Shown: piece after piece, positions 465-27,400 of the stretch
Layout of the letters: each line of letters begins with the position of its first letter
Numbering within the stretch: position 1 is the first letter of the stretch
Origin: Owenia fusiformis
Taxonomy: Eukaryota; Annelida; Polychaeta; Sabellida; Oweniidae
Direction of reading: 5' to 3'
Assembly: GCA_903813345.2 (NCBI GenBank)
Contig: CAIIXF020000010.1
Coordinates: forward strand, 12,467,181-12,531,180
DNA length: 64,000 bases
Program-made: the position numbers and the translations under genes
Notes under the pieces: model-generated
Seen by the model: only the letters and a program-made list of their open reading frames with translations
Database searches by the model: none
Told to the model about the DNA's origin: nothing

Positions 465-3400
465 GTAAATTGTCCTCTTTGAATATCATTATACTGAAAG
501 AAGTCATACAGTGGCAAAAGATGTGGCTTCGTGCTAAGTGCATCTGGGTACTAGTTAATACACAGAATATCTAGGAATGACTTGTGTACTGAACAGAGCT
601 TTTACTGAAGGATTGCGCAATATTAGATTAACTAACCTGGCCCATTTATTATAAGAATCATGTTATACACCTCACAAACTGATAATATTCAGTTTGATAT
701 TGTATAGAAATTGAGTTTGTTTTTTACATCTGAACATTCTCCAGCATATTAGTAAAAGCCATTAACCTGAATGTATACAATACATATAAAAAGAGTTTAC
801 TTTACATATTGGGAAAATACTTTCATGATGTAGAACTGATCTCCACAGGATTGTTTCTCAAGTGGGTGCAAAATTCCCAATTCATACTGAAATTGGTCAA
901 AATATGCCCATTTTTCATGATTTTTCTCATTTTCGAGTGGGTGCATATGGATTTTCAAGTGGGTGCAAATGGATTTTCAGGTGGGTGCAAGCCTGTTTTT
1001 AAAATCTCAGGTGGGTGCTCAGGGCCCAATTGCTTTAATGCTGGATCACATAATTGTGAGGATAAAGGTTTGTGTTGAAATAGAAGAGAGGTTTCGATAA
1101 AAGTTGTTTTGAAAACAAATACATAAACTTTTTCTCTAAAGGGTCTTGTAACACTTAAATTAGTTTGTATAGGGTGTTTGATAATGTCCATCTCCAAAGT
1201 CAATTTGAGATTAAACAGAACTATAATATATACAGGGTGTTCCAAAAGTAACAGGACTGGTGCTGGCATTTTGACAATTTTGCACTGAGTGTCTTCAAAT
1301 ATTCACAACTTGTGCTTTGAAGTATTGCAACTTAAATTATTAAGTTTCAGAAACAATGATGGAATGCGGTTAGAGTTATGGTTACTATAGTAACATGACA
1401 TCCCAATACCCGTGGCAACTTTTTTCCTGAAAATGTGATATCTAACATTTTTGTATTACTGAAACGAGTATCCAATTCACCTATTATAATACAAAATTTC
1501 TTGTTTATTTTTATTGGTTGTTTTGTTGTAAAGGTGTTGCTATACAACTCAGATTCAAGTATAATTTCATAATGATAATAATATGTATTCAATTTCCTGG
1601 AATATCACTATGTATAACAGTCCGAACAATTCACGGTTGAGTTTTTGAAAAGACCCAATTTGAAGTCAGTCATCTACCTTGATAGCGCGCCTGCGCGCAG
1701 GTCACCATTAAAGACCACGCAGCTATAGAGAAGCTAGGTCTTGAGGTCTAAAACCATGCATCATACTCTTCTGGTCATGCAATATCTACTTTTTTATTTA
1801 CTTATATTGAGAACGGAATGCTAATTAGTGCTGTAAGACTTTTAAAGATGAGAATGACCTTCTCCAAATTGTCCAATCGACCCTTCGTGACTTGTCCTCA
1901 AATGGGTTCACTCATGTGTTTTGGTCATGGATACAGAGTACTACTCTTGTACTGACAAAGAGGAGCCTACTTTTCAAAGTAGAGGATACATAAGAATATC
2001 ACATGATGTAAAACAAATGTAATTGCCACCAGTTGTTGCATTTCAACTTTGATATGGCATGTACAAAATGATATGGCATGTTCAAAATGCTTAATGTCTC
2101 TGTAATTATTTTGCGTGGAATGTTGCCCCGGGTATTGCAATGTCATGTTACTATAGCAACCATAACTCTACCAAAGTTTAATATATTTTGTTGAAACTTT
2201 GCAATCTTAGTAATGATACATGAAAGTACATTATGTTAAAGACGATTGGTGCATATTTGACAAAATGCCAGCACCAGTCCTGTTACTTTTGGAACACCCT
2301 GTATATATCATATAGGAACAAAGTTTAATATTTTAGACACATGTGACAATAAATACAGTTTAAAATTTACAAATGGTAGATGCATTTGAACTATATTTGG
2401 AGATTTTTTACTAATAGCCCACTTTATGTAACACCCTCTATATAGACACGTACAAGTCATGGTAAAGCACTGGGGAGGAACTGAAGATAGGTTTCTTTTA
2501 TCCTTCCAATATTAGGCAAGTATGTAGTTCCAGCTTCAAACTAGGATTAGAACTTTGAAATTAAAATACTGTAATTGCTGGGATATACACAAACTAATTC
2601 CCTAAAATAGGAAACGAGGGAAAGTACTTTCCTCATTTCTTCGAAAAATGTTCCTCCCCAGTGGGGTTTTCATCATTTTTTAAAAGTTGAAGTTGCAGTA
2701 TAAGTTTGGCTGAAAACGTATACTGAAACCTCTCTAGTATAATATCTCACACATACATGTGGTTACTTAAATAATGCATATTTAAAGCTACACTACAATC
2801 GAACATACATGTATATGTATTTTTATTTTAGTTATACTAAGCCAGTGATCTCCCCAGCATTTAAGCAAGTGGGTGCAGCACCTACTTGAGATTATGAAAA
2901 TAGGCCTGCACCCACCTGAAAATCCATTTGTACCCACTTGAAAATGAGAAAAATCATAAAAATTGGCATATTTTGACCAATTTTTGTCTGAATTGTGAAA
3001 ATTAGAATTGTAAACCCACCTGAGAAAAAATCCTAGGGAGATCATTGTAAGCTGCTTAAGAAACTCTGTAGTAGTGACTATGTCATTTTTAGTTCACCTG
3101 TTCCACACTATTCTCTATTAATCTCCAGGAGTTAGCCTACCTCATCCCAGGTGTGAGCTTTGAGATCCACATGATAGGACCAGATATTGCCGACACCGCA
3201 GATGGCAAAGCGTACGATGATGTTGATCTACATGTTATGGTGCATAAATGTGCCTATCATGAATATCCAGGACCACCACCTGACTTCATTATAGGTAAGT
3301 AGATCACTACATCATCTGATCAATTTGAAGTTGAATTTATATGAGTTTGAATTCATTGTATTTTTATCGGCTGGCCTGAAGGATCCTTTGTTCCAGTATT

Positions 3401-6400
3401 TAACAACTTCTCTCTTGATTGTGCTTCAGAGTCCCTGAAGTTATATCACAAGATTGTCCTATGAAGTTGTATCACAAGATTGTCCTATGAGGTTGTATCA
3501 CAAGATTGTCCTATGAAGTTGTATCACAAGATTGTCCTATGAGGTTGTATCACAAGATTGTCCTATGAAGTTGTATCACAAGATTGTCCTATGTAGTTGT
3601 ATCACAAGATTCTCCTATGAAGTTGTATCACAAGATTATCCTATGAAGTTGTATCACAAGATTGTCCTATGAAGTTGTATCACAAGATTTTCCTATGAAG
3701 TTGTATCACAAGATTGTCCTATGAAGTTGTATCACAAGATTGTCCTATCATATTGGAAGTACTTTTCGGCTCATTTGTCCTTTGTTATCCACATTATATT
3801 GTGGGATTACCTGTTTTTAGATGGAGATTGATGTCATCATGATCACAATGTTGTCTCCTTGAAAATGTCTAAGTGGGAATCCCAAATTGTTGAAGTGTCT
3901 GGAGAAAAAATGAATCATGAAATTATGATATAAAAATAGTTTTATTGTATTATATCTTGGCCAATGGGGGATTTCCAGGTTTGCCCGTAGACTGATGATA
4001 TGCAGTGATGTAGCCAGGATGAAAAATGTGACGAGGCAAACCTGTTAAAAAGCGATGAGGCAAATGCCTTGCCTCATCCTGGCTAGAGATATGCAAATGA
4101 AAAATGATAATGCACAACCTTTTTAGCTCACATGGTGAGCTTTTGCAATCAGGATTCCTGTTTTAAGTTATTTCTGTTCGAGATCAATACAGAAAACTCC
4201 CCTATGACTCCTGGTTCAAAAGCTCGCCTATTTTCAAAATGGCCGTCACTTTTGTCTCGCGAAATTCACTTTTGACCCATTTCCTAGCTTTACAAATAAT
4301 TTCAGGTGTCCTACACTGTAAAATTCCATGTCAATGTAAAGGGTAGATATATGTTATAATATTGTTACAAAAAATCAGCGAAAAATTATATCCATTTTTT
4401 TTTATTTTCAGCCATTTTAGTTAACATTGATTTGTCTATCTGACTTGCGAAATCCACTTTTCGTCAATAACAGTGGCACGTTTTAAAACCTCTGTCGATA
4501 GGATTCCTGTTTTAAGTTATTTCTGTTCAACATCAATACAGAAAACTCCCCTATGACTCCTGGTTCAAAAGCTCGCCTATTTTCAAAATGGCCGCCATTT
4601 TTGTCTCGCGAAATTCACTTTTGACCCATTTCCTAGCTTTACAAATAATTTCAAGTATCCTACATTGTAAAAATCCATGTCAATGTAAAGAGAAGATGTA
4701 TGAAATAATTTTGTTACGAGAAATCAGCGAAAAATTATATCCATTTTTTTATTTTCATCCATTTTAGTTAACATTGATTTGTCCATCTGTCTCGCAAAAT
4801 CCACTTTTGGACCATTTACCTTAAAACCTCTGTCGATAGGATTCCCGTTTTAAGTTAATTTTGTTCAACATCAATACAAAAAACTCTCCTATGACTCTTG
4901 GTTCAAAAGCTCACCTATTTTCAAAATGGTCGCCATTCTTGTTTCGCGAAATTCACTTTTTGCCCATTTTCTAGCTTTACAAATAATTTCAGCTGTCCTG
5001 CATTGTATAAAGCCATGTCACTGTAAAGAGTAGTTGTATGAAATAATTTTGTTACAAAAAATCAGCAAAATATTATATCTGTTTTTTTTATTTTCAGCCA
5101 TTTTATAGTTAACATTGATTTGTTCATCTGTCTCGCGAAATCCTCTTTTGGACCATTTACTTAAAACCTCTGTCGATAGGATTCCCGTTTTAAGTTAATT
5201 TTGTTCAACATCAATACAAAAAACTCTCCTATGACTCTTGGTTCAAAAGCTCACCTATTTTCAAAATGGTCGCCATTCTTGTTTCGCGAAATTCACTTTT
5301 TGGCCCATTTCCTACCTTTACAAATAATTTCAGGTGTCTTGCATTGCAAAAAGCCATGTCACTGTAAAGAGTAGTTGTATGAAATAATTTTGTTCCAAAT
5401 AATTGAAAAAAAATTATATCTGTTTTTTTTTCAGCAATTTTACTTAACATCGATTTGTCCATCTGTCTCTCCGTCAGTCCAAAATAGTGGCAAGTGGCTT
5501 GAAATAATTTTGTTACAAAAAATCAGCAAAAAATTATATCTGTTTTTTTCTGTCACCATGTGAGCCCAGTACCCACGGTACTAATTTTCAATGTATTTTT
5601 CTAGAACTATTATCATTACTCCCTGTATAAAAATACTAATGCATTTCCTTATGGCTTAAATACTTGACCATTGAGGTATTTTAGAATGAATAAGAAATCT
5701 TACCTATAGTTGGGACATGTACCCTCACCACATTCCCATTTTGAGTCATCAGGGGGTCTTGTTCCACTGCGGCACTCTCCTCGTCATAACTTATGTCTCC
5801 TTGCCCTTCAGTTTGTAAATTGTCATCTTTGCCATTTGTTCCTCTGCTCATTAAGCATTTTATTTTGTCCATGATATGTGATCTATTTTGTATGGTTACA
5901 ACTACAGCTATTGTAGTTATCATGCCACAAGCAGCTGCAACAACTGCTACAATAATCAGACTTGAATTCTTAGATGAACGTGACAGAGCAGCGGATGTAG
6001 TTATAGGAGTGTTTGTCGAAGATATAGGAGTGTTTGTCGAAAATATAGGAGTGTTTGTTGAAGATATAGGAGTGTTTGTCGAAGATATAGGAGTGTTTGT
6101 TGAAGATATTGGAGTGTTTGTCGAAGATATAGGAGTGTTTGTCGAAGATATGGTGGTGGTCGAGCTCGAAGATGTTGGTGTTCTTCTCTTATACTCCTGG
6201 TCCCGCATGAATACTAACAAGACAAATAACATAAAATGATTAATTGCCTAGGTGCTAGTAGATGGTTACCATTCATACCACTAGGTGGCTTAGTCGGGTC
6301 AGATAGCATTGTAGATATGCAAAAAGTTCCCCAAACTTGTATCAAAATACATTCAGAGAACCAATTTCCATCGAAACATCTTTGAGTATGATAATCATAT

Positions 6401-9400
6401 TACAAATGTATTTAAAAGTAACTCTAGAAGTAAAATCTGTTTAAATAAAAAGCAAAATATCTCAATTTTCATGATTTTTAACATGAATTTCAGGGTAATG
6501 GGAAGTCTATCTGACCTTGAAATCACTTTTAAAAATTACAAGTTGATCACTTGTTCTATGAACAACAATATAATATTTATAAACAGGTAGATTTCAAGCA
6601 CGACTGCACAAAGTTTTACTGAATGTTAGTTATGAAATTTCAACTGATATCAGCAGTGTAATAAATATGAATAAAATCTTGGAAAACTTACCTGGACATA
6701 TCCTATAACATTGTATTTTATAAGATTCTCTTTCTGCTATTATACTTTCGCTACAAGCCTCAATACATTTTTCACACTGACCAACCCGTGGCTCGCAATA
6801 ATGGTCTTGCATATCACAATCAAATTTTCCACATTTTGTTACCCAATATGACTTTTGTGCTGATGTTGGGACGGCTCCCACAGATATAGCACAGAAAAGT
6901 ATCAATCCAAGTATTTCTCTCATTTTCTTTGTTGTTGTTCCTCTTTTTCTTTATGTTTTGTCATAAAGTAATCATTCATTTATGCTAATTTTCAATCAAT
7001 TGGCGTGATGTTGCAGTGCTGTAGTCGCATTTAATCTGAAGTGTAGCAGTATGATGTAAGATTTTATAAAGTTTTTGGGGTAATTCCATTGTTGGATTTG
7101 TCATCAAATTTAAATTGTTTAATTTTAATCAAATATCCATCCAACATAATAAAAATTACATTTGTTGATAAACTTTCAATCTTGAGTGGATCATGACGCA
7201 TTCATCATGTCCATGTCAGTCTTTGAAATGTATGATGTGAGATTTTACTAATATATTCTATTGTTAGATTGATCATAAAAATAACATTTGTTTTCAAAAT
7301 TAAAAGGTAAGCCTTAAGTACTGAATGAGGAACTCATGTTGACATCAGTAAATTTAAATGTCTCAACAAATCTTACTGCGCAAAATGATTCTGGTAGGTA
7401 ACAAATTTTATGATTAATAAAAATCATGTATATCAAGGACGTACATATTTCTGATTCAAATTATTATTACTTCATTATCCCATCGAACGAAGTTCGGAGG
7501 GATATAGGGAACGCCTCCGTCCGTCCATCCGTCTGTCCGTCCGTACGTACGTCCGTCCGGGCAATAACTCAAATACCGTTGGCCCGATTTTGTTCATATT
7601 TTGTACACATATACCCTATGGGGGTAGAAGTTCTGCTCGAAAGCTGATTTTCAAAATGGCCACTCATTTCAAAATGGCGGCCATTTTAGTGCCAAATTTT
7701 CAGTAATTTAGGTGCAATATGTAAAACTGTAATAGCAATATGTTTTAGATGTAAAAAAATTATATAGGACATTAATAAAGCTAGAAATGTAGATATTAAA
7801 GAAGCACATGGCAGCCATCTTGAAAAATGGCGGCATTTACTCGTTATTTTACGATTTTTGCTTTAACTCGAAAAGTAGTGGAGCGATTTTGTTCATATTT
7901 GGTATGTGAATACTATAAACATTGCACACTGTCTAAAGACACTTTTATTAGAAGGTGGCCATTTTGAAAAATGGCCGCCATTTTAACCTATTTTACTATA
8001 ACTCGAAAAGTAGTGAAGCGATTTTGTTCATATTTGGTATGTGAATACTATAAGGATGGCACACTGTCTAACGACACTTTTGGTAGAAGGTGGCCATTTT
8101 GAAAAATGGCCGCCATTTTAACGTATTTTACTTTAACTCGAAAAGTAGTAGAGCGATTTTGTTCATATTTGGTATGTGAATACTAAAAGCATGACACACT
8201 ATCCTATGACACTTTTAGTAGAAGGTGGCCATTTTGAAAAAAAATTTGAAAAATGGCCGCCATTTTAATGTATTTTATAATAATTCGAAAAGTAGTGAAG
8301 CGATTTTGTTCATATTTGGTATGTGAATACTGTAAGCATGGCACACTGTCTAATGACACTTTTGGTAGAAGGCGGCCATTTTTCAAAATGGCCACCATTT
8401 TAACGTATTTTACTATAACTCGAAAAGTAGTGGAGCGATTTTGTTCATATTTGGTATGTGAATACTATAAGTATGGCAAATGGTCTAATGACACTTTTGG
8501 TAGAAGGCGGCCATTTTGAAAAATGCCTGCCATTTTTGCTATATACTTTGTTTGTAAAAATGCCATCCATGGCTGTTCGATGGGATTCGCTACGCTTTGG
8601 CGTTGCCGTTGTTCTGGTTATACTTTCAGACAAGACATTGATGATTATAGAATAAAATGTTTTTAAAATAAAAAATGTTTGTATTAAAAGTCTGTATACA
8701 AGTTTATAAAGGTTAAGTTAATGATTCATAAAACGTAAGTGATAATGTACTTCTCCTTATTATGGTGCTGTTCAATTCAGTTTTAAGCAATTTTTGAAAT
8801 ATTGATCAGTATTTTATTTGGTCGCTTGCAATATATCTTGACCTCTAAGTTGTTGTTCATGTCAAATTAATACAATTTTAGCACAAAATACTCGTAAATA
8901 TCATTTGTCACATTTCGTTCAAGTTTAAAAGACTAATGCCTGGTGAGGATAGTACCATTTAGGGATGAAAAGGAATTTCCAAATTGATCAAAAAATTCAA
9001 GATGGTCACCATATGCTTTGTCCTATGTACTGAACATTAATCAATTTTAAGAAAATATTTGGTTTTCTTAAAAGTTCAATAAGAGACCTTTGATGCTTTT
9101 TAAACCTTTTCAAAATAGAAACCGGTATTGATACCAATACTGAAAGTGTTCTCAATTACTAGAGTACAGTACATGTAATTTGCAATTAGATGCACTTCAG
9201 AATTTCATGGTAAGGTTGCTCTGGGTGCCCCAACCTTAATATATTGACAAAAAATAAATAAAATAATATAATTTAATCATAAGATTTCTCATGGTTGAAA
9301 ACTGTGTCAGCCATTAAGACCATACACAGCTAATCTCTGACAGTACCATACGGTACCATTTTGGCTGCAGTATTGTACAGTACCATGAATATGGTACCGT

Positions 9401-12400
9401 ATACTAAAACAGTACCATTCAGTATCATTTTGGCTGCGGTATTGTACAGTACCATGAATATGGTACCATAGACTAAAACAGTTCCATATGGTACCATTTT
9501 GGCTGCAGTATTATACAGTACCATGAATATGGTCCCATATATAGACTAAAACAGTACCATATAGTACCATGAGTGTTTGTCGAAGATATAGGAGTGTTTG
9601 TTGAAGATATTGGAGTGTTTGTCGAAGATATAGGAGTGTTTGTCGAAGATATGGTGGTGGTCGAGCTCGAAGATGTTGGTGTTCTTCTCTTATACTCCTG
9701 GTCCCGCATGAATACTAACAAGACAAATAACATAAAATGATTAATTGCCTAGGTGCTAGTAGATGGTTACCATTCATACCACTAGGTGGCTTAGTCGGGT
9801 CAGATAGCATTGTAGATATGCAAAAAGTTCCCCAAACTTGTATCAAAATACATTCAGAGAACCAATTTCCATCGAAACATCTTTGAGTATGATAATCATA
9901 TTACAAATGTATTTAAAAGTAACTCTAGAAGTAAAATCTGTTTAAATAAAAAGCAAAATATCTCAATTTTCATGATTTTTAACATGAATTTCAGGGTAAT
10001 GGGAAGTCTATCTGACCTTGAAATCACTTTTAAAAATTACAAGTTGATCACTTGTTCTATGAACAACAATATAATATTTATAAACAGGTAGATTTCAAGC
10101 ACGACTGCACAAAGTTTTACTGAATGTTAGTTATGAAATTTCAACTGATATCAGCAGTGTAATAAATATGAATAAAATCTTGGAAAACTTACCTGGACAT
10201 ATCCTATAACATTGTATTTTATAAGATTCTCTTTCTGCTATTATACTTTCGCTACAAGCCTCAATACATTTTTCACACTGACCAACCCGTGGCTCGCAAT
10301 AATGGTCTTGCATATCACAATCAAATTTTCCACATTTTGTTACCCAATATGACTTTTGTGCTGATGTTGGGACGGCTCCCACAGATATAGCACAGAAAAG
10401 TATCAATCCAAGTATTTCTCTCATTTTCTTTGTTGTTGTTCCTCTTTTTCTTTATGTTTTGTCATAAAGTAATCATTCATTTATGCTAATTTTCAATCAA
10501 TTGGCGTGATGTTGCAGTGCTGTAGTCGCATTTAATCTGAAGTGTAGCAGTATGATGTAAGATTTTATAAAGTTTTTGGGGTAATTCCATTGTTGGATTT
10601 GTCATCAAATTTAAATTGTTTAATTTTAATCAAATATCCATCCAACATAATAAAAATTACATTTGTTGATAAACTTTCAATCTTGAGTGGATCATGACGC
10701 ATTCATCATGTCCATGTCAGTCTTTGAAATGTATGATGTGAGATTTTACTAATATATTCTATTGTTAGATTGATCATAAAAATAACATTTGTTTTCAAAA
10801 TTAAAAGGTAAGCCTTAAGTACTGAATGAGGAACTCATGTTGACATCAGTAAATTTAAATGTCTCAACAAATCTTACTGCGCAAAATGATTCTGGTAGGT
10901 AACAAATTTTATGATTAATAAAAATCATGTATATCAAGGACGTACATATTTCTGATTCAAATTATTATTACTTCATTATCCCATCGAACGAAGTTCGGAG
11001 GGATATAGGGAACGCCTCCGTCCGTCCATCCGTCTGTCCGTCCGTACGTACGTCCGTCCGGGCAATAACTCAAATACCGTTGGCCCGATTTTGTTCATAT
11101 TTTGTACACATATACCCTATGGGGGTAGAAGTTCTGCTCGAAAGCTGATTTTCAAAATGGCCACTCATTTCAAAATGGCGGCCATTTTAGTGCCAAATTT
11201 TCAGTAATTTAGGTGCAATATGTAAAACTGTAATAGCAATATGTTTTAGATGTAAAAAAATTATATAGGACATTAATAAAGCTAGAAATGTAGATATTAA
11301 AGAAGCACATGGCAGCCATCTTGAAAAATGGCGGCATTTACTCGTTATTTTACGATTTTTGCTTTAACTCGAAAAGTAGTGGAGCGATTTTGTTCATATT
11401 TGGTATGTGAATACTATAAACATTGCACACTGTCTAAAGACACTTTTATTAGAAGGTGGCCATTTTGAAAAATGGCCGCCATTTTAACCTATTTTACTAT
11501 AACTCGAAAAGTAGTGAAGCGATTTTGTTCATATTTGGTATGTGAATACTATAAGGATGGCACACTGTCTAACGACACTTTTGGTAGAAGGTGGCCATTT
11601 TGAAAAATGGCCGCCATTTTAACGTATTTTACTTTAACTCGAAAAGTAGTAGAGCGATTTTGTTCATATTTGGTATGTGAATACTAAAAGCATGACACAC
11701 TATCCTATGACACTTTTAGTAGAAGGTGGCCATTTTGAAAAAAAATTTGAAAAATGGCCGCCATTTTAATGTATTTTATAATAATTCGAAAAGTAGTGAA
11801 GCGATTTTGTTCATATTTGGTATGTGAATACTGTAAGCATGGCACACTGTCTAATGACACTTTTGGTAGAAGGCGGCCATTTTTCAAAATGGCCACCATT
11901 TTAACGTATTTTACTATAACTCGAAAAGTAGTGGAGCGATTTTGTTCATATTTGGTATGTGAATACTATAAGTATGGCAAATGGTCTAATGACACTTTTG
12001 GTAGAAGGCGGCCATTTTGAAAAATGCCTGCCATTTTTGCTATATACTTTGTTTGTAAAAATGCCATCCATGGCTGTTCGATGGGATTCGCTACGCTTTG
12101 GCGTTGCCGTTGTTCTGGTTATACTTTCAGACAAGACATTGATGATTATAGAATAAAATGTTTTTAAAATAAAAAATGTTTGTATTAAAAGTCTGTATAC
12201 AAGTTTATAAAGGTTAAGTTAATGATTCATAAAACGTAAGTGATAATGTACTTCTCCTTATTATGGTGCTGTTCAATTCAGTTTTAAGCAATTTTTGAAA
12301 TATTGATCAGTATTTTATTTGGTCGCTTGCAATATATCTTGACCTCTAAGTTGTTGTTCATGTCAAATTAATACAATTTTAGCACAAAATACTCGTAAAT

Positions 12401-15400
12401 ATCATTTGTCACATTTCGTTCAAGTTTAAAAGACTAATGCCTGGTGAGGATAGTACCATTTAGGGATGAAAAGGAATTTCCAAATTGATCAAAAAATTCA
12501 AGATGGTCACCATATGCTTTGTCCTATGTACTGAACATTAATCAATTTTAAGAAAATATTTGGTTTTCTTAAAAGTTCAATAAGAGACCTTTGATGCTTT
12601 TTAAACCTTTTCAAAATAGAAACCGGTATTGATACCAATACTGAAAGTGTTCTCAATTACTAGAGTACAGTACATGTAATTTGCAATTAGATGCACTTCA
12701 GAATTTCATGGTAAGGTTGCTCTGGGTGCCCCAACCTTAATATATTGACAAAAAATAAATAAAATAATATAATTTAATCATAAGATTTCTCATGGTTGAA
12801 AACTGTGTCAGCCATTAAGACCATACACAGCTAATCTCTGACAGTACCATACGGTACCATTTTGGCTGCAGTATTGTACAGTACCATGAATATGGTACCG
12901 TATACTAAAACAGTACCATTCAGTATCATTTTGGCTGCGGTATTGTACAGTACCATGAATATGGTACCATAGACTAAAACAGTTCCATATGGTACCATTT
13001 TGGCTGCAGTATTATACAGTACCATGAATATGGTCCCATATATAGACTAAAACAGTACCATATAGTACCATGAATACTGTATGGGACCATCCTTAAACCG
13101 TACTTTATTCCTTATATATCGTACAGTACCATAAAGAGTGCTGATTGGGAGTGTAAATTAAGACCCACCAAATAGCTCCTCTTATGAACAGACAGAGGAT
13201 GTACTTAGACCCCATATACCACCAGTTACCAAGCTGACCTCCCAAGCTGGTCATACCCTATGCAGTGACCAAGACATCCAGCCCATGTTTCAAATTCCCT
13301 GCCAAAGTCAATTGTCAAAGTTGTATTGATGTGGGACAAAATATTTTACAGTAAAATTTAACTAAAAATGTCTGTGGTAGATGAACTTTTGAATATGAAT
13401 GCTGCCAGACAGATATATGTATGTCTCATATATGTATTTTTTATTGCAAAAAGTACTTGAGGGATTTAAACTTTGTCATACTTCAACCAGCCAAGTGGTT
13501 ACATTTTGTCAGATTAATTCCTTTTTTATCTCACCATCAAAAAATGGTGACAAATTGTAATAACTACCATTTTTGTGGTATATGGCATTAACATTTGTAA
13601 AAAAAAAGTTCGTGAATTTGGCATTGCAACTAGGTATTGACATTTTATTGTGAAAATTTTCATTTATTGTAAAAATTCCCTGGTAGTTCTGTATTTCATG
13701 TCTAATATCATTGTAAGTTTAAAAAAGTTTAAACGTTTTTAGTTGCTTAATTGTTTCAGGAAGAAGAGTTCAGTAGACAAGTGTGTGTGAAGTAAAAACT
13801 TGTATTTGATGATCCTTTGGGGGCACACATACTGAACATTACAATATCTTTTTTAATGAAAGCATCCTTTATTAGATAGACATAACTTGATAAATGCAAT
13901 AAAGCTAATCAAACAATTAAAATTACTTTTATATTGAATTGATATAAACTCCTTATGATATTATTAACTAAAAGCATGTACATGTAATACACATTGTTTA
14001 GTCTAAAAGCGACATTTGTTTATCATTAACCTGCCCCTGTAGCTCTATAGTAATACTTGTAGTTCCAAAGGTGTTGTTCCTTGTTTGAAAAGTGATCATG
14101 AACTCTTACTAGGCATTGATTCCCTATGTTACTTCATTATATGCCGCTGACCTATCAACAAGTTCGCTTATATTCCTTTGTCAAGTACAAGGCTACAACA
14201 TACAGGAATTGTCATACAAGGGAAATTCCATTTAGTAATAGTAAATTTTAATTTTGGTATAATGTACAAATATGGTGATTATACACTTAATTGAGTAACT
14301 GTAAGATATAGGGTACTTTACAAGAATTGTCATACAAGGCAAATTCCATTTTGAATGGTAAATTTTAATTAATTTTAATTTGTATAAGATACAAATAAGA
14401 TATATGAGTAACTGTAAGATATAGGGTAAATGCAAATCATACATACTAAAAGATAGTTCTGTGTCTCGTACAAGGCTACAACTTTGCAAGAATTGTCATA
14501 TAAGGCAAATTCCATTTTAATAGTCCTGAAATAAATCTTCAACTGAATTCCTAAAGTTACCTTGAAGTACATGGGAATTTTTATCAAATAAAGGGAATTT
14601 ACCTTTATGACAATTGCTTTAATAAAATTAAAACAAAAACCCAATGCATATCCTTGCATAACTTGGTGTAACTCAACATTTATGACATGTTTATGACCAT
14701 GATGGAATCACTTGAATACAGTACTGTTTATCCAACAATACAGTCCAACTATGTAACTATAATTGTATCCTTAAACTCCCTTATTCACTAAGTCTAAGAA
14801 AGAGTATCTGTGATACTTTTTCATGACTTTTTTGGCCAATAACAAAATGATCTTGTGTTCTTTAGTCTCCTAGTGTGCGACCATCATCTTGATGCTCAGT
14901 TTCATTGAAGTCATTGAGATTCGCAACATCAGAGTTAAGAGAGTTACCAGTGGGGGTGTCATGAACTCCATGTTGGTGTTGACCATCTGGAATAGAAGAA
15001 CCTGAAGAGGAAAATGGAATATTGATTTAAGTGGTATTTAAGTTGTTATTAATCTGTTTCATTAGGCAATGTTACTATGTTTTGAGATTGTAGCTATACC
15101 ATCATTTCAACCCCTTTTAAAATATGTGTTATAGATAAATTATTCAGATCAAAATCATCACATAACATACCTTGTCTTGAACCTTCAGTGCGCAGATCGC
15201 GTCCTCCATCTGTCTTCAACATTTCCATCAGTGTCTCTGTATTTCGTTCACACTCCTTTGGTCCCTTTCTCTTGCGATTCACACAGATGGGATATTTCCG
15301 TATCACCATCACAACTACAGCCACACAGAAAACTATTGGAGTAACTATGATGAAAGCAATTTTCATTGTGCTCATTTGTGTAGTGCCAGTCTGTTGGTTG

Positions 15401-18400
15401 CCATCAGTTGTGGTGTTGGTGGTTGGAACCATCATTTGTACCCTTTGTACAAATATATTAGCTTGATTATCCAGCTTTCTCGATTTCTCATTTTCTTTGT
15501 CCCGCATGTAAACTGAGCAATGTTTGTAACACTGTGCTTGATAATTTGCATGTCCTTTTATTCGAGCGTCTGAACAGTACTCAAAGCAGTGGATACACTG
15601 ATCCATCCTTTCCTCACAAAATTCAGTCCTTGTATCACATGGTATTTTTGATGTACCACATTCAAAGATCCACTTATGCTTCTCTTTAGTAGTTTGCTGA
15701 TCAATGGCCAATGCTGATACATATGCTTTAATGACAATTAGAGTACAGACAAAAAGTACAAACAATGGCTTTGGTTGTGGCCACATTTTGATCTTTTTGT
15801 ATACAAGTCCTTCGTTAATATTATTTGAACATCAAAGCTTGACAAGGATGAATTTTCCAGTCTCTTTCTCCAAGTGTTTCTAGGAAGTCTTGGTCTTGTG
15901 TCTGTCTCCTATGAATGAACACTATTTCATTCTATTTTTTCAATCGTTCATCCTTTGTTGACTTATATTGGATGTGAATGAAAATCAACCAACACATTAT
16001 TTTATGAATACTACCAAAGCATCTCTCTTTTATAAACATTGTTACATCCTATATGAATCAAATCTTGGAACTCCCTCTCTCAATACCTCTAATCGATTAA
16101 TCAACTTACTTTGCATTTGTTTATTTTGCATTGTAAATCACAATATGAAGTATGTACTTAATCAGCTTTTCATGAACTTCACTTTGTGTTTTCATTACGA
16201 ATAGAACATGTAATATATGGATCGGTGTAACTTATATGTATTCACTATGTGTGATTTAAGGTCACTTAACCACCTACAATATGGCCACTTCATCTATTCT
16301 TAATCGTTGGGAATGGGGGAGAAGTTGGAGTATGTGTATTGTTAAATAAGATTCATTTATATAAATGATAAAACTGTAGGAAGGTGTTAACCCTTTTAGA
16401 GGGTTCTTAAGTGCCTGGAATGACTATTATTGTTATTATTCACACATGATTTATGTAATGTTACGGTCATTAGTTGCAAAATGGAAATTCACAAAGAACT
16501 CATCTTCATGATTGCATGCAGTTTCAGTAACTGAGCAGATAATAATGGCAATAAATGAAAGTGATAGGGGGTGCATATAAATATAGAGGGTGCATACAGG
16601 GTGCCCGTTGTCTCCAGGACAGACAGTAGTATAATCATTTTATTTTAGAACAATTAAAATGATTGAATTGAGTTGATAAAACTATAATCAAATGAAAATA
16701 AATAAAACAGACATTTCTAGACAATAAACATTCCATTTTATTTGTAATTTCATCATAATACAGATATTTGATGATCGCAAGAAATTTAAAGTTCAATAAT
16801 GTCAAGTTATAAAAATAACGTTATAAGTGTAAATGCAACACAAACTAAACGTTGGCCAGTTAAAGTACATAATACATGTCATGAAGTTACTTTACTGTAT
16901 ATTCAAGTCTTTCAAACACATAAACTTGTTTATCAATCACGAATATAAATGTACTGCAGTTTTATATTACATCGTACAAAGGTGTTGATCATTGCATTGT
17001 CATCATGAACTCACATGAAATATAAGCTATATGTACTTGACATACATGAAAGCTTAACATCCAATGAATTATCCAACTAAGCAATTCATGCAACATTTTT
17101 AGAAATATATTTACAGCAATATGAAATATTTTCTTGATGATATTATTACGTAAGTTGGTTCCTATTTTTACTGGCACAAAAATCCCATTTTCAAATGGAA
17201 AGAGAACTGAATCATCCAAATGATTTTAAAATGGGATGTCTATGATGTAAATCAAACTGTTGAAATTAATTTGGTACTTAATAATTACAGTATGTTTAAT
17301 TTAAATATGAATTAATATAATATTTATATATGTACAATAGACTATATAGTTCTGAGAAATAGTATTTGTGTTTTTCTTGGAAACAAACCAATGACCAAAC
17401 CAAACCTAACTATGAAATATGTGGCCATGTCCATATATGTTTTATTTTGAATTTATTCAACATGATTGGTTGCCGATAACCAAATCATTATTCTCTGCTT
17501 TCAACTCTGTCTCTGCTTCAAAGTCATTTTGATTTGCTATGTCAGAGTTTCCACATTTGTGCTGACACTCCGAGAAACATCCGCATGTCTGGCTTGGAAC
17601 AGAAGAACCTGAAGATAAAAATGAGAATAATTGTGAACCTGAGTTGCTACCTGTTGATCTCACAACCAGTATCACAGTCCTCAGTGGATTTAAAAATGTA
17701 TTTCTTTCTATTCTCAAAATAAGGTGATACATTTCTAAACATTGTCAATGCATCTCATGGAACTTGTGTAGCCATGTGATGACATTTTGATATTATATTC
17801 AATATTAATTATGGAAATGAATAAATATTTCATGAATGCATGAATTTGTATGATCAGTAAGAAACCCTAAAAAGATAAATAACATAATTTACCTGCTGTT
17901 CGTATAAGCTTGTTTTTGTCTGTCATAAGGGGATCTCGTGCCCCTGTTTCTACATTGTTTTCACATTGCTTAGGTCTTTTTGTCTTGTGATGTTTCCAGA
18001 TCACAATCCCGATCCCAATAATAGCCAAACCAAGTATAGATACAATTATACTGAGAGGAATTTTCAAGTCGTTCTGTTGTTCTTTGTGTTCTACGTCACT
18101 TTCAGTTTTAGCAGTGATGGTGAGAGGATCTCCAGTAGAAGCTTTTGCTTCTAGAGATGATCCAGTTGGATTGTTCAACTTTCTCGTTCTTTTATTTTCT
18201 TTGTCTCTCATAAAAACGGGGCAGTTTTCACGACACTGTGTTTGATAATTTTCATGTCCTTTGATTCTAGCCTCGGAGCAATATTCCAAACATGGAATAC
18301 ATTTGTCCATTCTTTCCTCACAAAAGTTGTTTATTTTGTCACATGGAATTTTTGATTTTCCACAAGGAAAGATCCAGTCTTGCTTCTCTGTGGTTGTTTG

Positions 18401-21400
18401 TTGATTTGTTGACAAGGATGAAACAGGTGCTTTACTGACAATGGTAAAAATAATTGTCATAAAGAACATTGCATTTGATTTGCGCCACATTTTGCCCTGG
18501 TGTCTATGAGCTTTTGAATATAAGAAAAGGCACTACTTATCTCACACAAAATGGGTTTCCAGTTTTTTCCTCTAGTGTTTTTAATATCACCTAGCTTGTT
18601 TCACTTTAATGTAATTTCACTTCTCCATTCGTTATATTTTCTCAAGTCTTTTCATGTAATGGATTGCATGGAATGAGAATAAAAAGCATCTGAACTCTGG
18701 TTTTAATCATTTTGCAAAAAGTCTGTGATTCAAACCTGGCATTGGAAGCCCAAAACCTGAATCAATGTTGCAACATGGACTTTCAGAGGTGTGTACAGCA
18801 AAACGTATGAGTTCAAGTGCTACCTGATGATTTGTGTTACCTTTGACACCATTGTAGACTTACCAGTATAAATAAGTGCAAAGTATAAAATACATTGAAA
18901 CCTGTTTATAGTAAACATTTACAGAAAAACATTCGCTGAAGTTAGGTTTGTTTTTCAAATTGATGATCAGAAAAAGACTGTTTAAAGATGGGTTATTGCA
19001 GGTAAAAATAGTCAGAAAATTTAACGTATGGTCTCACAGACAAGCAAAGATTGTGACATAGTTAGCTGTACACAAATCAAACCATCCATCCGACCACAAT
19101 GGAGTCATAGTGTCGAATATTGTCACTGGGAAAACCTGGTCAAGACCATGCTTAACCAGAGACCATGTTTTCATACCTGTACCTGAATAAAAAGTATATA
19201 GAAAATTGAAAACAAAATTGTCCAATACTGTAGAAGTGGAAACTTCGGCGAAACAAAACTTTAGCGAGATGGTCCCTAAAACTTTATTGCCGAATTAAAC
19301 TTTCCCGGACCAGCAATCAAGAAAATGGAAAATTACTTGGGCGAGCTTATAAGCTTATTATTAGGTTATCATGAAGCATTTATTCACCAACACGATTGGT
19401 TGCATTTTTGTAAACCCCGAGTTGTAAACATGTATATCACAGTTATAAGCTCTATATCAACGTTATTAGCCCTATAATTAAACTTGCCTTTCGAGGAATG
19501 GCGTGTCACCATCAAAAGTAAGTCGTTTATGTTTGTGTGTAATCCCCAATCAATGTGCTCAAACCGTCAGTAGGTGTTAATACCCGACAAACAATCAAAT
19601 AAGTAACAAACTCGGCTAGGCCTAATTCACTATCAAACTTTATTCTATTTATTGTACTATTGTGGGTGGATGTTGACTTGCGTTTATGTTCTGTTCAGTA
19701 TCTTATGTTTTGTTTAGGAATAAATGCTAGTATAGATCTATTCTTATAAGATAATCGTGTCATTCATGTTAGTGATGAGTTGTCACGTGACAGTAGATGT
19801 CCAATCAAATTACAGGTTTTGTGATCGAAAATTCGAAAAATTATTTCTGTAATGTTTTCATCATTTAGGGCAACAAAACATGATTGCAAAACAAAATAGG
19901 TATTAATTATGATTGTAAATCGATGAGGAAACACTGAGGTATGTATTATTTATGTATTCGAAACGAAATTCAGCATCTGGATGTCGATCTGTATTCTTCA
20001 CGGTATTATCGCCCACCGATATTTTTTTCATATTTTTCTACGAATTTTTATTTTGGCGTCTCTCCTTCAACGCTAAATTTCGCCAAAGTTTCCACGTCGT
20101 TAAAGTTTCCACTTCTACAGTACATTTTGACAGGTAGAAAATGTAGGTAAATAAATTGTTAATTCTGTTTTGTGTTCACTTAACACAAGTGAATTCTATG
20201 TGTTTGTTAAGATATATAGAAATTTTACATAGGAGTCAGTGAGTGAAAATGTTTTTGAAAACTATTTAATTTTCACTAAACGAGGTGTTCATATGATAGA
20301 GGTGTAAATGTACAGATTTTACTGTTCTAATACTGAAACCAATACCATACTGCACGATTGTTATAACAAAATGATGAGTCAACTGAATTTACAATAATCA
20401 ATATACTTTAAAGAACTTTTTTGATGTTGAATGGATATTTTGTGACAATGTTTTTTTATTTTATGTTTTACTTAATTTGATATCTAAGTGGTTTACCATT
20501 ATGTACTTACTGTTTGTAACCAGTTATTGACTTGAAAATATATGTAAACCTAAAAGTAAGAGGTACCCAGCAAATTTTGGACTTTTATTGAGTTGAATGA
20601 TTAAAAGGCAGTTGTTTCTAATTTTTAAGCAAGGTCCATCGTGAAATCATGAGATCATATCGTATGTGAAGAAATTACTGTAGATTTAACTCATTGTTCA
20701 AGTGCAACCTGGATTTTTAATGCAGCCATTTTAAATTTTCAACCATGTGTTCATAATCAAATGCTCAGATTTCTAGGCAGTGTTGGAGACGGTATTTTTC
20801 AAAATCCAAGCCCATGTTTACTAATCTAATTTTTCATGAAAATGTATAGTATGTATAATATAGTCTATTATTTATATCATAATTTTACAAATGCATATAA
20901 CACACCCAGTAAAGTGGGCATATCAGTGCCTATATCAGTTGTTATGCAGAGCAAACAAGTATTCAAATTACAATAATATTTTATCTTTTGTCTAAGTAAA
21001 CTATAATATAGCAAACTTTGAATTGTCTTTAAAAAAATAAATAAGAAGAATGTGTTCTTACCATTAGTAATCTAAAAATGCAATAATGTCCAAATTTAGC
21101 AGAATTGAGAATATCTGCTTTTTAAATTTCAAGTTAAATTATTAGAAACATATTTTCTGTTCCTGTTCTTTCAGGTTTCAATGCTGGTATAGGAGCCTAC
21201 ATGCCCTGGGCTAACACCCTTGTGACTCTAAAGGTAGGTTGGATATTATGTCTAAGTCTGAGACACAACTTCAGTAAAAACAAATGCATCTTTTACAAAT
21301 GAATTTTACCGTTTTCAAATACAAAACTCTTAAAATAATTAATTTATTAATATAAGAAAAATGTAACAAGAAAAAAGAAATTTGGTAATATTAAAATTGT

Positions 21401-24400
21401 AAGTATGAATTAAATATGTTTTACAGCATATGCTTTATTTTGGCATGTTGGTTGTTTTAATGAATAACTTCTTGTTTGCAAGGGTTTTACTGAGACCGCC
21501 AGACTGAAATATATGACTACCAGTATACAGAAAAATGAATGCATTAAAACACCCACAGTTTATTGAACCCTTAAGCTAGAAGACTTTGAACAAAATATTA
21601 AAAGGAACTGCAATTCAACCAGAAACCTTTTTGCAAGGACATGAAGCCTCAACATTTTGACTTGCATGTACCTATTAGCACTGGCATGTAGCGGCCCTGA
21701 TATCGATAAATTCTACACGCAATATAACCCGATTTTAGATGCTTGGTTAAAACTTTACACGAAAAAGCCTCGATATCCGGGCATTTACTCTTACACTGAA
21801 CTGAAAATAGCATCGTCTAAACGTGTATGTCTTGGCTTCCGGGTAAGTTTATCAACATTTATACTCAATTGAAAGAGCAGTCGTGCATATATCGTGTACC
21901 AGTTTGATTGTTTTATATGTGTGTGTATTTATAATATGATAGTCTAGTAATACCGTGTCGTTAGAACAAGTGCTAGATATCGAACTGATGACCTGAAATT
22001 AGATTATTGGACTGATCGCGCATCTGATATTAGATGATTAATTTGCATTGAATCTGATATTAACTTGCAACCCAATACTACAGTAAATACCATGATTTTA
22101 CATTAGAATGATAACACGGCCTCATATTCTAATTCATTTTACGTCCATTGCAGGCCAAAAATGTTTCAATGGGGATATTGTAATGCACACGAGAATACAT
22201 TCGATTCGTATATATTGACACCCCAGTTGTCCGAAACCCAGTTGTCCGAAACCCAATTCCCCGAAACCCAGTTGTCCGAAACCCATTACTCCGAAAAATA
22301 AAGTCATAATTTACCAGAGAAAGGGGGGGGGGGCGGGCGTAGCTTACTTAAGCTTACGTCAGTTTCATGCCATGTATTTGGCCAAATTAATGGCATGGAC
22401 GCATTCTGATATTCATAGATCTCTCTCTCACCTTGAATTGCATCCATTGCATGGCGTTACCAGAATGGCAGGAACGGGAGATTTATTTTACATTGTGATT
22501 CTAAAAAAGGTTATTAAAACACAATATATATTACGGAACAGTTTATCTTATCTTCTTCAATCTCTTTTATATAGGCAAAATAAAATGAAACATTTTGAAA
22601 CAGATAAAATAAGGTATAGAACTTTAAGAATAAAACAGTATACAAATTACGTTGTCAAAATATTTCGTCGCATTTAATTTCTTAGTCTCAGTCTCTTATC
22701 AAATCGTAAAAGAATAAAACATTCTAAACTTAATCACTTGGGATTTATGTTTCGGCATTCGTTTCAGGCATTTGTTTTTTATGTTCTTCTCCTGAAATGT
22801 ATTTGTTTGACAATAATCAGAGAAAGTGCGTATACGTATAAATATGCCACGCAAACAAACGGGTGTGACTTCAATTTCTTGTCTGTCTGAGGACGTATTG
22901 GGAACGAGGTAGAATTAAAGAATTCTTATGAACAAATGTATTGGATAAGTTAATTTCTGATGGATCTGGATAAAATATATTTCAAAACTTTGTCAACACT
23001 AGATAACTTCATTTAGGCAGATATAGTATCTTGATATATTTGGCTATCATGCGTTTAAAATACGTTCCTAAAACTATGAAGACGTTGGGTGAGAAATATT
23101 GCTATTGTACGTTCGAAAAGTATTTGGTTGTATTTTGTAGTTCTCAAGTTACCCATGAACTTTCTTGGGCTAATTAACGTCTTGACTCAGCATATTTAGC
23201 CTAATTTTGCAATGATGTCAACGTGATTCAAATGTTATGCTGTCGTGATTCGCAGAGGTTGCGACAAGATTCGTTTTAAGAAATTGTATTTTTTGATAAG
23301 ATCCCCTAATTTTCGGAGAACTTGGTTTCAGACAACTGGGTTTCGGAGAATTGAGTTTCGATATGCATATCTCCCTCTGGAAAAACCCCGCATCCAAAAC
23401 CTCCCAGTACATAACCCGTATTTATCCCATGGTTACAAGGATATAGATCGAATATCACGTGAAGATATAATTGATACGTGGATGAAGATATCATATTTTA
23501 GCAAAAAATTCCCAAATCATCGAATATCACTTTTGAAACCATCGAATATCACTTTTTGAAAGGTGATATTCGATGGTTTCAAATTGATATTCGATGGTTT
23601 CAAAAGTGATATTCGATGGTTTTGATTTTTTCAATTTTTTTTATTAATTCAGCAAAACGATTGTTTATGAAGAGCTCAAAAAGTTCAATCATCTATTTAT
23701 CTCAAAAAGACCTCAAAAACTGAGCTTGAATTAGAAATATGTCTTCTAAAATCTTCCTCGCCTGGACCTGATGGGATTCTACCATCACTTATTAAGTCTG
23801 TAAGACAGTTTTTAATTGATCCGCTCTTGTATATATTTAACTTATCTTTTAAATCTGGTATTTTCCCAGACGCCCTCAAATTGGCCAAAGTAACACCTGT
23901 ATTTAAAAAAGGAGTCACTACAAATCCTTCGAACTATAGACCAATTTCAGTTTTATCGGTATTTTCTAAATTGTTAGAAAAGCTCATGCACGCCAAACTC
24001 ACTGGTTTTTTAGAACGTTTTGAAATTATTTTTACTTATCAATTTGGATTTCAGAAATTCAACTCTACCTACATGGCCATTTTATATTTCATTGAACAAA
24101 TTCGAAAATCAACTGATTTGGGGAAAACGAGCATTGGCATAACATTAGATTTTTCAAAGGCCTTTGACACTATTAATCATGACATTTTGATACAAAAACT
24201 TGAATATTATGGCATCAGAGAAATAGCTAAGTCCTGGTTTGAAAGTTATTTAAAAGACTGCAAACAATATGTCACCATTAACAATTATGAATCTAAACAA
24301 TCATCTCTAAATTGTGGTGTTCCGCAGGGCTCGGTACTTGGACCACTATTATTTATTCTTTACATAAATGATCTGCCTTTTGTTGACCCTAATCTAAAAT

Positions 24401-27400
24401 TTATTATGTTTGCTGATGACACCAATCTTCTTGATAGTGATTATGATTTAAATGAACTTATGACTAGAACTAATGCAAACTTGAATTCAATAGATGACTG
24501 GATAAAAGCAAACAAACTTTCACTTAATATTGGCAAAACCAATGCTATTCTATTTGGACCCCCAAAAAATCAAACAAATCTGAATCTCAAAATACGCAAT
24601 GAGAACATAAATTTCCGGGATAAAATTGACTTTCTTGGAATTATTATTGATAAAAACTTGAAATTTAAAGAGCACATAAAATCTATTGAAACAAAGATTT
24701 CTCGCGTCATTGGTTCTCTTTATCACATTAAACATCTACTTCAAATAGACAGTTTCAAAACAATTTACTACTCATTGATACACTCTCAATTAAATTATTG
24801 CAACATAATCTGGGGTAACACATTTAAATCATTTTATGATCGTCTACATAAACTGCAGAAACAATTCTTAAGGCTAGCTTTAAATAAGGATAGACCTTCT
24901 CACTCCGCTCTCTTATTTGAAGATCTTAACATATTAAATATTTTTGATGTCAACAGATATTGTACTGGTCAGTTCATGTACAAAATCTTTAATAAGCACC
25001 CCAGTCTTCCAAAAAATCTATTTCAAGACTTGTTTGATATCAACATTAATATTCATCATCATTACACAAGACAATTGCATTATTTTCATATCCCTAAATG
25101 CTCTAAACTTTCCCTTCGCTATCTAGGTCCTAATCTTTGGAATGCTCTACCACATGATATTAAAAAATGCTCCACTCTAAATATTTTCAAATCTTCATAT
25201 AAAAAACTACTCATCTATCGATAATGTATAATACCAATATCATACTATACTGTTGATTTTATACTGATACCTGATTTTTGTAACATTTTTACATTGTACA
25301 TCCTTAGATTAATTGTTAATACCATTTTTATATACCTACATGTAACATAATATAAGTGTTTTCTTTTATATGTAGTCTAGATGTCATTTTAATGATTTCT
25401 GTTAGACCGCAACATATACCCACTAGGGTGTCTAGCGGCTTGTTTTTATAGTGTATATTATATAAGAATTATGAAATAAATTGAATTGAATTGAATTATA
25501 TATTTATTATATATTTTTATTTTTTGGGATCCTGTTTTTACGGCGTTCGCATTAAATACAAACCACTCTGTTACGTCACGTATATGACGTTCGTTGAATT
25601 ATCGCAATCAAAATGTCAGACGAAATGGAATTTCCATTACAATTTATCTGACTATTCAATGTTCGCTGGATAATAATTCCCAATGGGATAAACGGACAAT
25701 CCTATAGTTTTTCAAAAATAACACTTATATCCACTCATGGATATCAGTATCTTCACCCATTCGCTGCGCTCACTCGCGAAGATATCAATATCCACTCATG
25801 GATATAAGTGATATTTCAGAGCCATAGGATATTCCTATATTATTCCATAATTAGCATGATATCCATAGGATAACATGTCATAATAAAAACGGTATTTTTG
25901 AAATCAGTGGTAAAATATGATATTTTTGGCAAATTTTCACTTAACCATAGCATACGGTGTTTTAGCCATGACATGCGGCGCCGTATGCCATGGTTTATGG
26001 ATTTTTGCTACTTCAGACTCAAAACGAGGCTAAGTGTCAATATCGCCGTATCGTTTGGAAAATTCGTTTTAGATCACTTAATTCCCGAAGATTCTGATGA
26101 TGACTTTAACTATGGAATATAAAGAACATCCTATGATTTACTCGTGATATGGTTTTAATCCACTCATGGATGTTGATACATGTATCTGCACTCTCTCGCT
26201 ACGCTCACTCGTGCAGATATCATATCCATTCGTGGATAAAAATCATATCACTCATAAATCATAGGATATCCTCTATTTAAGATGTGATATTCGATAGTTT
26301 AAAAGTGATATTCGATGGTTTGTAAATTGTTTGATAAAATATGATATCTTGATCCACATATCAAATATATCATCATGTGATATTCGATCTATATCCTCCT
26401 TGCAACCATGGGATAAAGCTTTACGTCCCGCTCCAAGCGGGCAGATGTAGTATATCTGCCCGCTACGTCATAATCGCCGCTTGCATATTTGTTCATAATT
26501 TGTAACGTTCGCGGAATGACTGTAAACGGCAATGGAGAAAACACAGACAATCAGGGTCTGTTTGATAGTTAAAAAAAGGGAAAGGGCATCCACTTTATCA
26601 ATAAAAAATTCGAGAAAATGAATATGGGATTATTTGAGAGAACATGAAAATCCGCCCACAGCCAAGAAAACAAAACTGGACATGAATATTCTAAAATATT
26701 TCCACGATTTAACAATGTGAACCAGATGACCAAGATTGGTATGGGATAAACATATTATCCTATAGTCAGGATATTGGGATTATCCCTTGGCCAATATATA
26801 GGGGTTATGCAATTGGAGGTTTTGGATACAGGGAATATCCCGAGGGATATACAATACATCTTCCCGAGGGACCGAAGGGACCAAGGGAAGACATATTATA
26901 TATCCCTCGGGATATTCCCTGTATCCAAAACCTCCAAGTACATAACTGTTGTATATAGTTTAGCATGATATGTACTTCTTTCTGTAACTGGAATACGATT
27001 CTAATATACAAGCAGCATATACGTATTCCCGGGGAACCATAAATATTTTGTGTAGTGTGTGGACATTTTTCTTTTCATTTCTCTAAAATCAGATTATTCT
27101 CATAAAATTCATACAAAGTTGGGCCTAAGCCTCTATTTTCGTATTCTGCATGTTAAGATATTTATAATGTAAAACCTAAGAGATAAATTCAATGTCTTCA
27201 GTTGAGAATAAGTATAAGGTAAATGTGTGAATTCTGCTTGTTGTTGCACTATTTTTTATAATAAACAAGGTTCGATACGCAACAATGAATAGACTGCAGT
27301 CATAGCTTAGTTGTAAAGAAAACAAAAGAAGTTGGGACGTGGTCATGCTTGAATACGATTTTAAATATATCGCCGTTTACATTTGTTGAAATCGGCCTGT

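What the first reader, a model, noticed from the sequence alone, without database searches (positions are those of the whole stretch)
5704..18490. A family of antisense TNFR-like receptors nested inside one intron of an MSS51-like gene
All four copies (two full, one diverged, one truncated) lie on the minus strand between the host's second and third visible exons. They share signal peptide, eight-cysteine CRD, stalk, TM and an extra phase-1 terminal exon (seen in B and C). An expanding receptor family inside a host intron could be co-regulated with, or interfere with, the host transcript. The C-x2-C-x3-C...C-x3-C core fits a single TNFR/BCMA-like module; this is by motif layout, not by search.
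Basis: partly seen in the sequence, partly recalled or inferred. Interest (0 to 1): 0.8.

Follow-up and report, generated by a model that had tools for sequence, protein, structure and literature searches.

The report
Grindelwald-like TNF receptors nested antisense
Four antisense gene copies inside one intron of a host gene appear to encode small cell-surface receptors whose cysteine-rich domain most resembles Grindelwald, a fruit-fly TNF receptor; the nesting is of a common kind, but such receptors in this animal look new.

Summary
Four minus-strand copies lie in one 17,880-base intron (3295-21174) of a plus-strand MSS51_C-domain gene. C (15786-14862) and D (18490-17457) are complete two-exon genes. 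A (6923-5704) is intact up to a phase-1 donor; its last exon was not found. B is a truncated, letter-identical tandem copy of A without the membrane span. Six relatives lie on five other contigs. All nine distinct domains keep eight cysteines and an aromatic residue before the third. Their profile hits one of 177,635 PDB sequences, Drosophila Grindelwald (E 0.056: weak but unique). The AlphaFold model of C finds Grindelwald first and second, then BCMA, TACI and Fn14, none significant by E-value; the model of A was poor and found nothing. C against D gives dN/dS about 0.33. Best reading: a Grindelwald-type single-CRD TNF-receptor family, some of whose members sit in a host intron without a demonstrated link to the host. 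"Expanding inside the intron" is partly right: A/B is recent or an artefact, C/D is old, and one origin of the nested types is neither shown nor excluded. Co-regulation is untested; no RNA data were available.

The parts
3126..3294 (+). host exon upstream of the big intron (part matching MSS51_C profile 42-111); donor at 3295
3295..21174 (+). host intron, 17,880 bases, holding all four antisense copies
   Evidence: splice signals and adjoining MSS51_C profile positions on either side
21175..21233 (+). next host exon (MSS51_C profile 109-130, weak by itself)
27831..27983 (+). further host exon stretch (MSS51_C profile 126-182, under the Pfam cut-off)
   Evidence: G000:C10:12495011-12495163
6692..6923 (-). 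copy A exon 1: leader and eight-cysteine CRD
5704..6213 (-). copy A exon 2: motif VFMRDQE after the CRD, Thr/Ser stalk made of a 21-base minisatellite, membrane span, tail; ends at a phase-1 donor, last exon not found
6070..9570 (.). unit of a 3,501-base tandem duplication; second copy 9571-13071; no mismatch
10193..10424 (-). copy B exon 1, identical to A
9571..9714 (-). copy B exon 2, cut in the stalk by the duplication breakpoint; no membrane span
15171..15786 (-). copy C exon 1: leader, CRD, stalk, membrane span and part of the tail in one exon
14862..15001 (-). copy C terminal exon (phase 1), stop codon included
17893..18490 (-). copy D exon 1: leader, CRD, stalk, membrane span and part of the tail in one exon
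17457..17608 (-). copy D terminal exon (phase 1), stop codon included

Best explanation
The antisense genes encode small type I membrane receptors with one X2-C2 cysteine-rich domain of the Grindelwald type, a stalk, one membrane span and a short tail without a death domain. They belong to a family of ten loci (nine distinct sequences) on six contigs. Most likely each binds a trimeric TNF-family ligand through the beta-hairpin of the CRD and signals through the tail after clustering. They sit in the MSS51_C-domain host because genes came to lie, and later duplicated, in a long intron, and they are transcribed independently of it. Shown: gene anatomy, nesting, the eight cysteines, C-D divergence typical of selected coding sequence, TNF-domain and TRAF/meprin-MATH matches in the genome. 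Supported but not proven: Grindelwald-type fold and homology. Inferred: ligand binding, signalling, independent transcription.
For: Eight cysteines in 9 of 9 distinct members, intervals 4-7,6,6,2,3,11-14,3; Grindelwald from its second cysteine gives 6,6,2,3,11,3; Phe or Tyr precedes Cys3 in 9 of 9, where Grindelwald has Phe46 (role of Phe46 from passages of PMC8024323). The family profile hits one PDB sequence of 177,635, Grindelwald (E 0.073 and 0.056). Foldseek with the model of C (pLDDT 79.8): Grindelwald ranks 1 and 2, and 10 of 13 rows are single-CRD TNFRs. C-D dN/dS about 0.33 (pairwise mean, no test of significance). Membrane span in A, C and D. 15 TNF-domain matches and 16 TRAF/meprin-MATH matches. 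Six members lie on contigs where no MSS51_C match was found.
Against: Every E-value to Grindelwald is weak (0.056; Foldseek 0.39 and 1.9; the other TNFR rows have Foldseek probability 0.08 or less). With the cysteines held in place, 37 of 2,000 shuffles of the Grindelwald stretch score as well, so much of the score is cysteine spacing, and the fold search is not fully independent of it. A Grindelwald query against this genome finds one other place (E 8.2) and not the family. C alone against PDB finds no TNFR. No Pfam TNFR model matches. The model of A was poor (pLDDT 56.9) and found nothing. Three of the five models of C had pLDDT 43-51. No canonical TRAF2 or TRAF6 motif in five tails (motifs recalled; A's tail is incomplete and the C1 and C3 tails were read to the first stop of the exon).
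Confidence: 0.7

Rival explanations
1. The nested genes regulate the host: minus-strand transcription through the intron interferes with, or is co-regulated with, the MSS51_C-domain gene.
For: All four copies are antisense in the same intron. Interference between nested genes is in print: PMC3192792 and PMC8467205, the latter citing interference that drives rapid expression divergence of Drosophila nested genes (abstract starts in a search listing).
Against: Six of ten family members lie on other contigs, where the MSS51_C search found nothing; its only match outside the window has three stops inside (that search also missed the host's own short exon, so it is not sensitive). Antisense nesting in large introns is common: about 6% of Drosophila genes are nested, frequently in opposite orientation, and 2mit and its host do not seem functionally related (PMC3786989, passages).
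Confidence: 0.1
2. The domain is an unrelated small cysteine-rich module with convergent spacing, and the proteins are not TNF receptors.
For: Weak E-values, the cysteine-held shuffles (37 of 2,000), no Pfam TNFR match, failed reverse search, no TRAF motif.
Against: A sequence profile over 177,635 sequences and a fold search over 350,542 chains both put Grindelwald first, and the fold search continues with BCMA, TACI and Fn14. The Phe46 position is aromatic in 9 of 9.
Confidence: 0.2
3. Copy B is not a gene: the 3,501-base tandem copy is an assembly artefact or a dead fragment.
For: No mismatch in 3,503 bases; both breakpoints lie in or at the end of minisatellites; the second exon is cut and runs into a repeat.
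Against: A very recent true duplication would look the same; if transcribed, B would give a CRD and stalk without a membrane span, that is, a secreted decoy. No second haplotype copy was seen with 5650-7000 as query: of 40 rows scored (77 candidates) only the two window places match over more than 170 bases.
Confidence: 0.5

Closest known systems
Drosophila Grindelwald (PDB 6zsy, 6zsz, 6zt0)
   Same: one CRD; the same spacing in five of the six intervals compared (C-x6-C-x6-C-x2-C-x3-C ... C-x3-C), in all six for the C2 member; an aromatic residue before Cys3; membrane span; first hit by profile and by fold
   Different: the last loop is 14 residues in seven of nine, 13 in one and 11 in one (Grindelwald 11); of the Eiger contacts named in PMC8024323, Thr51 is Met, Glu52 is Asp and Arg53 is Gln or Lys in C and D (by eye); ten loci; no canonical TRAF motif found in five tails
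BCMA, TACI and Fn14 (human single-CRD TNFRs)
   Same: single-CRD type I receptors; next in the fold search
   Different: weaker fold matches; [quoted passage not shown]
Nested antisense intronic genes, e.g. 2mit in timeless2 of Drosophila (PMC3786989)
   Same: protein-coding gene in an intron of the opposite strand (passages)
   Different: here three distinct members of one receptor family, plus a copy, share the intron

Membership tests
Grindelwald-type TNFR (X2-C2 single CRD) | eight cysteines with X2-C2 spacing | tested here: met
   9 of 9 distinct members; intervals equal Grindelwald's except the last loop, which is equal in one (modules as described in PMC8024323 passages); the interval Cys1-Cys2 was not compared
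Grindelwald-type TNFR (X2-C2 single CRD) | aromatic residue packing between the modules (Phe46) | tested here: met
   Phe in 5, Tyr in 4 of 9
Grindelwald-type TNFR (X2-C2 single CRD) | fold: beta-hairpin module then two helices | tested here: inconclusive
   model of C shows strands then helices and finds Grindelwald first at E 0.39, target TM 0.63; model of A poor, no hit; disulfides not read from the model
Grindelwald-type TNFR (X2-C2 single CRD) | significant sequence similarity to Grindelwald | tested here: inconclusive
   only hit of 177,635 but E 0.056; reverse single-sequence search fails
Grindelwald-type TNFR (X2-C2 single CRD) | signal peptide, one membrane span, cytoplasmic tail | tested here: met
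   hydropathy: membrane span in A, C and D; N-terminal hydrophobic stretch over the threshold in A and C, below it in D; no signal-peptide program was run; the C2 member's CRD exon shows no leader by eye
Grindelwald-type TNFR (X2-C2 single CRD) | TRAF2-binding and Veli-binding tail | tested here: inconclusive
   no canonical TRAF2 or TRAF6 motif in five tails (motifs recalled; A's tail incomplete, C1 and C3 tails not checked for splicing); binding itself not tested
Grindelwald-type TNFR (X2-C2 single CRD) | binds a TNF-family ligand | not testable with these tools
   TNF-domain matches are present in the genome
Canonical TNFR (Pfam TNFR_c6, PF00020) | match to the profile | tested here: not met
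   no match in the spliced A, C and D proteins, the scanned exon frames, or the nine CRDs; the genome search finds PF00020 seven times, all elsewhere
[quoted passage not shown]
   absent from all nine CRDs; motif from PMC8024323

The most novel reading that the evidence does not exclude
Grindelwald-type receptors are not an insect oddity: they form an old animal TNF-receptor lineage that the Pfam TNFR profile does not see here, and that in this animal has grown to ten loci beside a large set of TNF ligands (15 domain matches); copy B is a newly born soluble decoy made by a duplication breakpoint that removed the membrane span.
Probability: 0.28. Interest if true: 0.68.

Novelty: new member of a known kind. 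Interest (0 to 1): 0.47.

Why it matters
Grindelwald was described as the first TNFR fold that joins an X2 and a C2 module (PMC8024323, passages), and many predicted homologues are said to remain uncharacterised by sequence-based tools (PMC9646898, passages; the same passage reports one mosquito homologue among two hits of a PF00020 search). A dispersed family with the same layout in a genome with many TNF-domain matches would make the age of this receptor type testable, and would add receptors that a PF00020 search misses in this genome. The nesting itself is ordinary in kind.

Tried and rejected
BCMA as nearest relative: set aside for Grindelwald by profile and fold ranks. Canonical TNFR by Pfam: no match. 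NCBIfam: only matches under the cut-offs. Single-sequence PDB search with C: two chance-like rows, no TNFR. Last exon of A: three candidate acceptors with pyrimidine tracts, none resembling the C and D terminal exons. One expansion in the intron: tree unresolved, 0 of 6 inner branches starred, long branches; nested types one group in 17% of 200 bootstrap trees; one origin not ruled out. Second haplotype copy of the A/B region: none seen; the other 38 rows are short matches to a dispersed repeat in A's intron. Grindelwald query against the genome: failed. Whether the six members elsewhere are nested in other genes: not tested. Species: 498 Mb and large contigs numbered up to C12 recall Owenia fusiformis (505.8 Mb, 12 chromosomes; PMC9977687 passages); not tested, and nothing rests on it. 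Grindelwald outside arthropods in print: searches (lists of 6 of 6, 15 of 313, 15 of 1,064, 15 of 78 and 12 of 2,631). Two papers hold Grindelwald, mollusc and TNFR together; their passages do not describe molluscan Grindelwald. This does not prove absence in print.
Full report
What is there. The window lies at G000:C10:12467181-12531180 in a 498 Mb animal genome of 525 contigs. A plus-strand gene with an MSS51_C domain matches profile 42-111 at 3126-3296 (27 bits, exactly the Pfam cut-off) and 109-130 at 21168-21233 (E 0.14), and 126-182 at 27831-27983 (under the cut-off). Each match is weak or at the cut-off; together they tile the profile in order. The first two exons flank a 17,880-base intron, and their junction is phase 1 and reads DFIIG|FNAG. 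I did not look for other domains of the host.

Inside that intron, on the minus strand, are four copies of one kind of gene. C (15786-15171, 15001-14862; 251 residues) and D (18490-17893, 17608-17457; 249 residues) are complete: leader, CRD, stalk and membrane span in a first exon, then a phase-1 terminal exon. A (6923-6692, 6213-5704; 247 residues so far) has an extra intron directly after the CRD and stays open at a phase-1 donor; I did not find its last exon. B has A's first exon and a cut second exon; it would make 157 residues with no membrane span.

A and B. Bases 6070-9572 equal 9571-13073 without a mismatch. The breakpoints lie in a 21-base minisatellite that codes for A's stalk and at the end of a 69-base minisatellite. 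This is either a very recent duplication or an assembly artefact. A search with 5650-7000 lists 40 rows (77 candidates): the two window places at length, and 38 matches of at most 170 bases to a dispersed repeat in A's intron.

Family. A search with C finds ten places: C and D, A and B, one each on contigs C1, C3, C8 and C2, and two on C9 (E 1.7e-168 to 0.036). Searches with A's CRD, with the C9 plus-strand member and with the C2 member find 9, 6 and 8 places, none new. The two C9 members are divergent and about 2.4 kb apart. Among nine distinct CRDs all eight cysteines are invariant. A phase-1 GT follows the codon after Cys8 in 7 of 9; C and D read straight through at exactly that point, so C and D probably lost this intron together. 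Matching acceptors were seen for A, C1, C3, C8 and the C9 minus-strand member; for the C2 and C9 plus-strand members no second exon was sought, and the C1 donor (GGTTGG) is weak.

Is it coding? C against D over 237 codons: dN 0.46, dS 1.39. In all 36 pairs of CRD exons pN/pS is below 1 (0.34-0.86), though many synonymous distances are saturated.

What it is. No Pfam TNFR model matches the scanned exon frames, the nine CRDs or the spliced A, C and D proteins. A profile of seven, then nine, CRDs hits one PDB sequence of 177,635: Drosophila Grindelwald, E 0.073 and 0.056. I had asked for papers on Grindelwald in the same batch, before its answer was seen; the E-value is still weak. When the Grindelwald stretch is shuffled with its cysteines fixed, 37 of 2,000 score as well; fully shuffled, 0 of 2,000. 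So the cysteine layout carries most of the signal and the other residues add a little. The reverse search, one Grindelwald stretch against the genome, does not find the family. AlphaFold on C with D and A as alignment gives pLDDT 79.8 (two of five models near 80, three at 43-51). Foldseek over 350,542 chains lists 13 rows, none at E 0.001 or better: ranks 1 and 2 are Grindelwald (E 0.39 and 1.9; target TM 0.63 and 0.56; probability 0.69 and 0.20), and BCMA, TACI and Fn14 fill eight more at probability 0.08 or less. With A first the model is poor (pLDDT 56.9) and finds nothing. The structure paper (PMC8024323, passages) describes an X2 hairpin, a C2 helix pair with C57-x3-C61 and C73-x3-C77, and Phe46 between them, whose loss abolishes ligand binding. 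Here the intervals after the first are 6,6,2,3,11-14,3 and the residue before Cys3 is Phe (5) or Tyr (4).

How it would work. By analogy with Grindelwald and Eiger the hairpin would sit between two subunits of a trimeric TNF ligand. The genome has 15 TNF-domain matches, all over the cut-off, one covering only part of the domain; those on small contigs may be allelic copies, so the gene count may be lower. It has 16 TRAF/meprin-MATH matches, some partial and one with a stop; the profile's name covers TRAFs and meprins alike. So partners probably exist. Five tails show no canonical TRAF2 or TRAF6 motif, and the spliced proteins show no death domain, so the route of signalling is open. A [DERN]-[PQ]-L-[LMI] motif recurs in three of five tails (A, D, C1) and might be a sorting signal; this is a guess made after seeing the tails.

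The nesting. Nested genes are widespread, about 6% of Drosophila genes, frequently antisense (PMC3786989, passages), though interference between nested partners is also reported (abstract starts). Here six of ten members are on other contigs, and the one MSS51_C match outside the window is broken by stops; that search missed the host's own short exon, so it cannot exclude diverged relatives. The tree does not join A with C and D but does not exclude it. I therefore read the arrangement as old placement of genes in a long intron plus one recent tandem event, not as a host-linked expansion. No RNA was available to test transcription.

Novelty. In the capped lists I saw no title or abstract start on Grindelwald-type receptors outside arthropods; the two papers that hold Grindelwald, mollusc and TNFR were checked by passages. 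TNFR expansion in an annelid is in print (PMC6862839, passages; the passages do not say which type). I file this as a new member of a known kind, provisionally, because fold and homology tests are inconclusive.

Noticed in passing
window 6002-6151: The stalk of copy A is coded by a 21-base minisatellite (about seven copies of a Ser/Thr-rich seven-residue unit); copy B keeps about four.
   Followed up: partly
window 15505-15525 and 18208-18228: C and D lack, with an exact junction, the phase-1 intron whose donor seven of nine distinct family members have right after Cys8.
   Followed up: partly
window about 6230-6405: Intron 1 of copy A carries a short dispersed repeat (matches of 56-170 bases) seen at 38 other places on many contigs.
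   Followed up: no
window 4151-5469: About four tandem copies of a 338-base unit between copy A and the host exon.
   Followed up: no
window 23671-25224: 517-codon open frame that looks like a non-LTR reverse transcriptase, in the next host intron (named by eye).
   Followed up: no
window 61678-63780: 700-codon plus-strand open frame that looks TPR-like (named by eye).
   Followed up: no
G000:C2:20209682-20209765: A canonical TNFR_c6 match lies about 24 kb from a group of four TNF-domain matches at C2:20.14-20.19 Mb; ligand and receptor may be neighbours.
   Followed up: no
L004:1990-2538: The C3 family member's frame ends in S-T-Y-V, the form of a class I PDZ ligand (motif recalled; splicing not checked); Grindelwald is said to have a Veli-binding domain (PMC8024323).
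   Followed up: no
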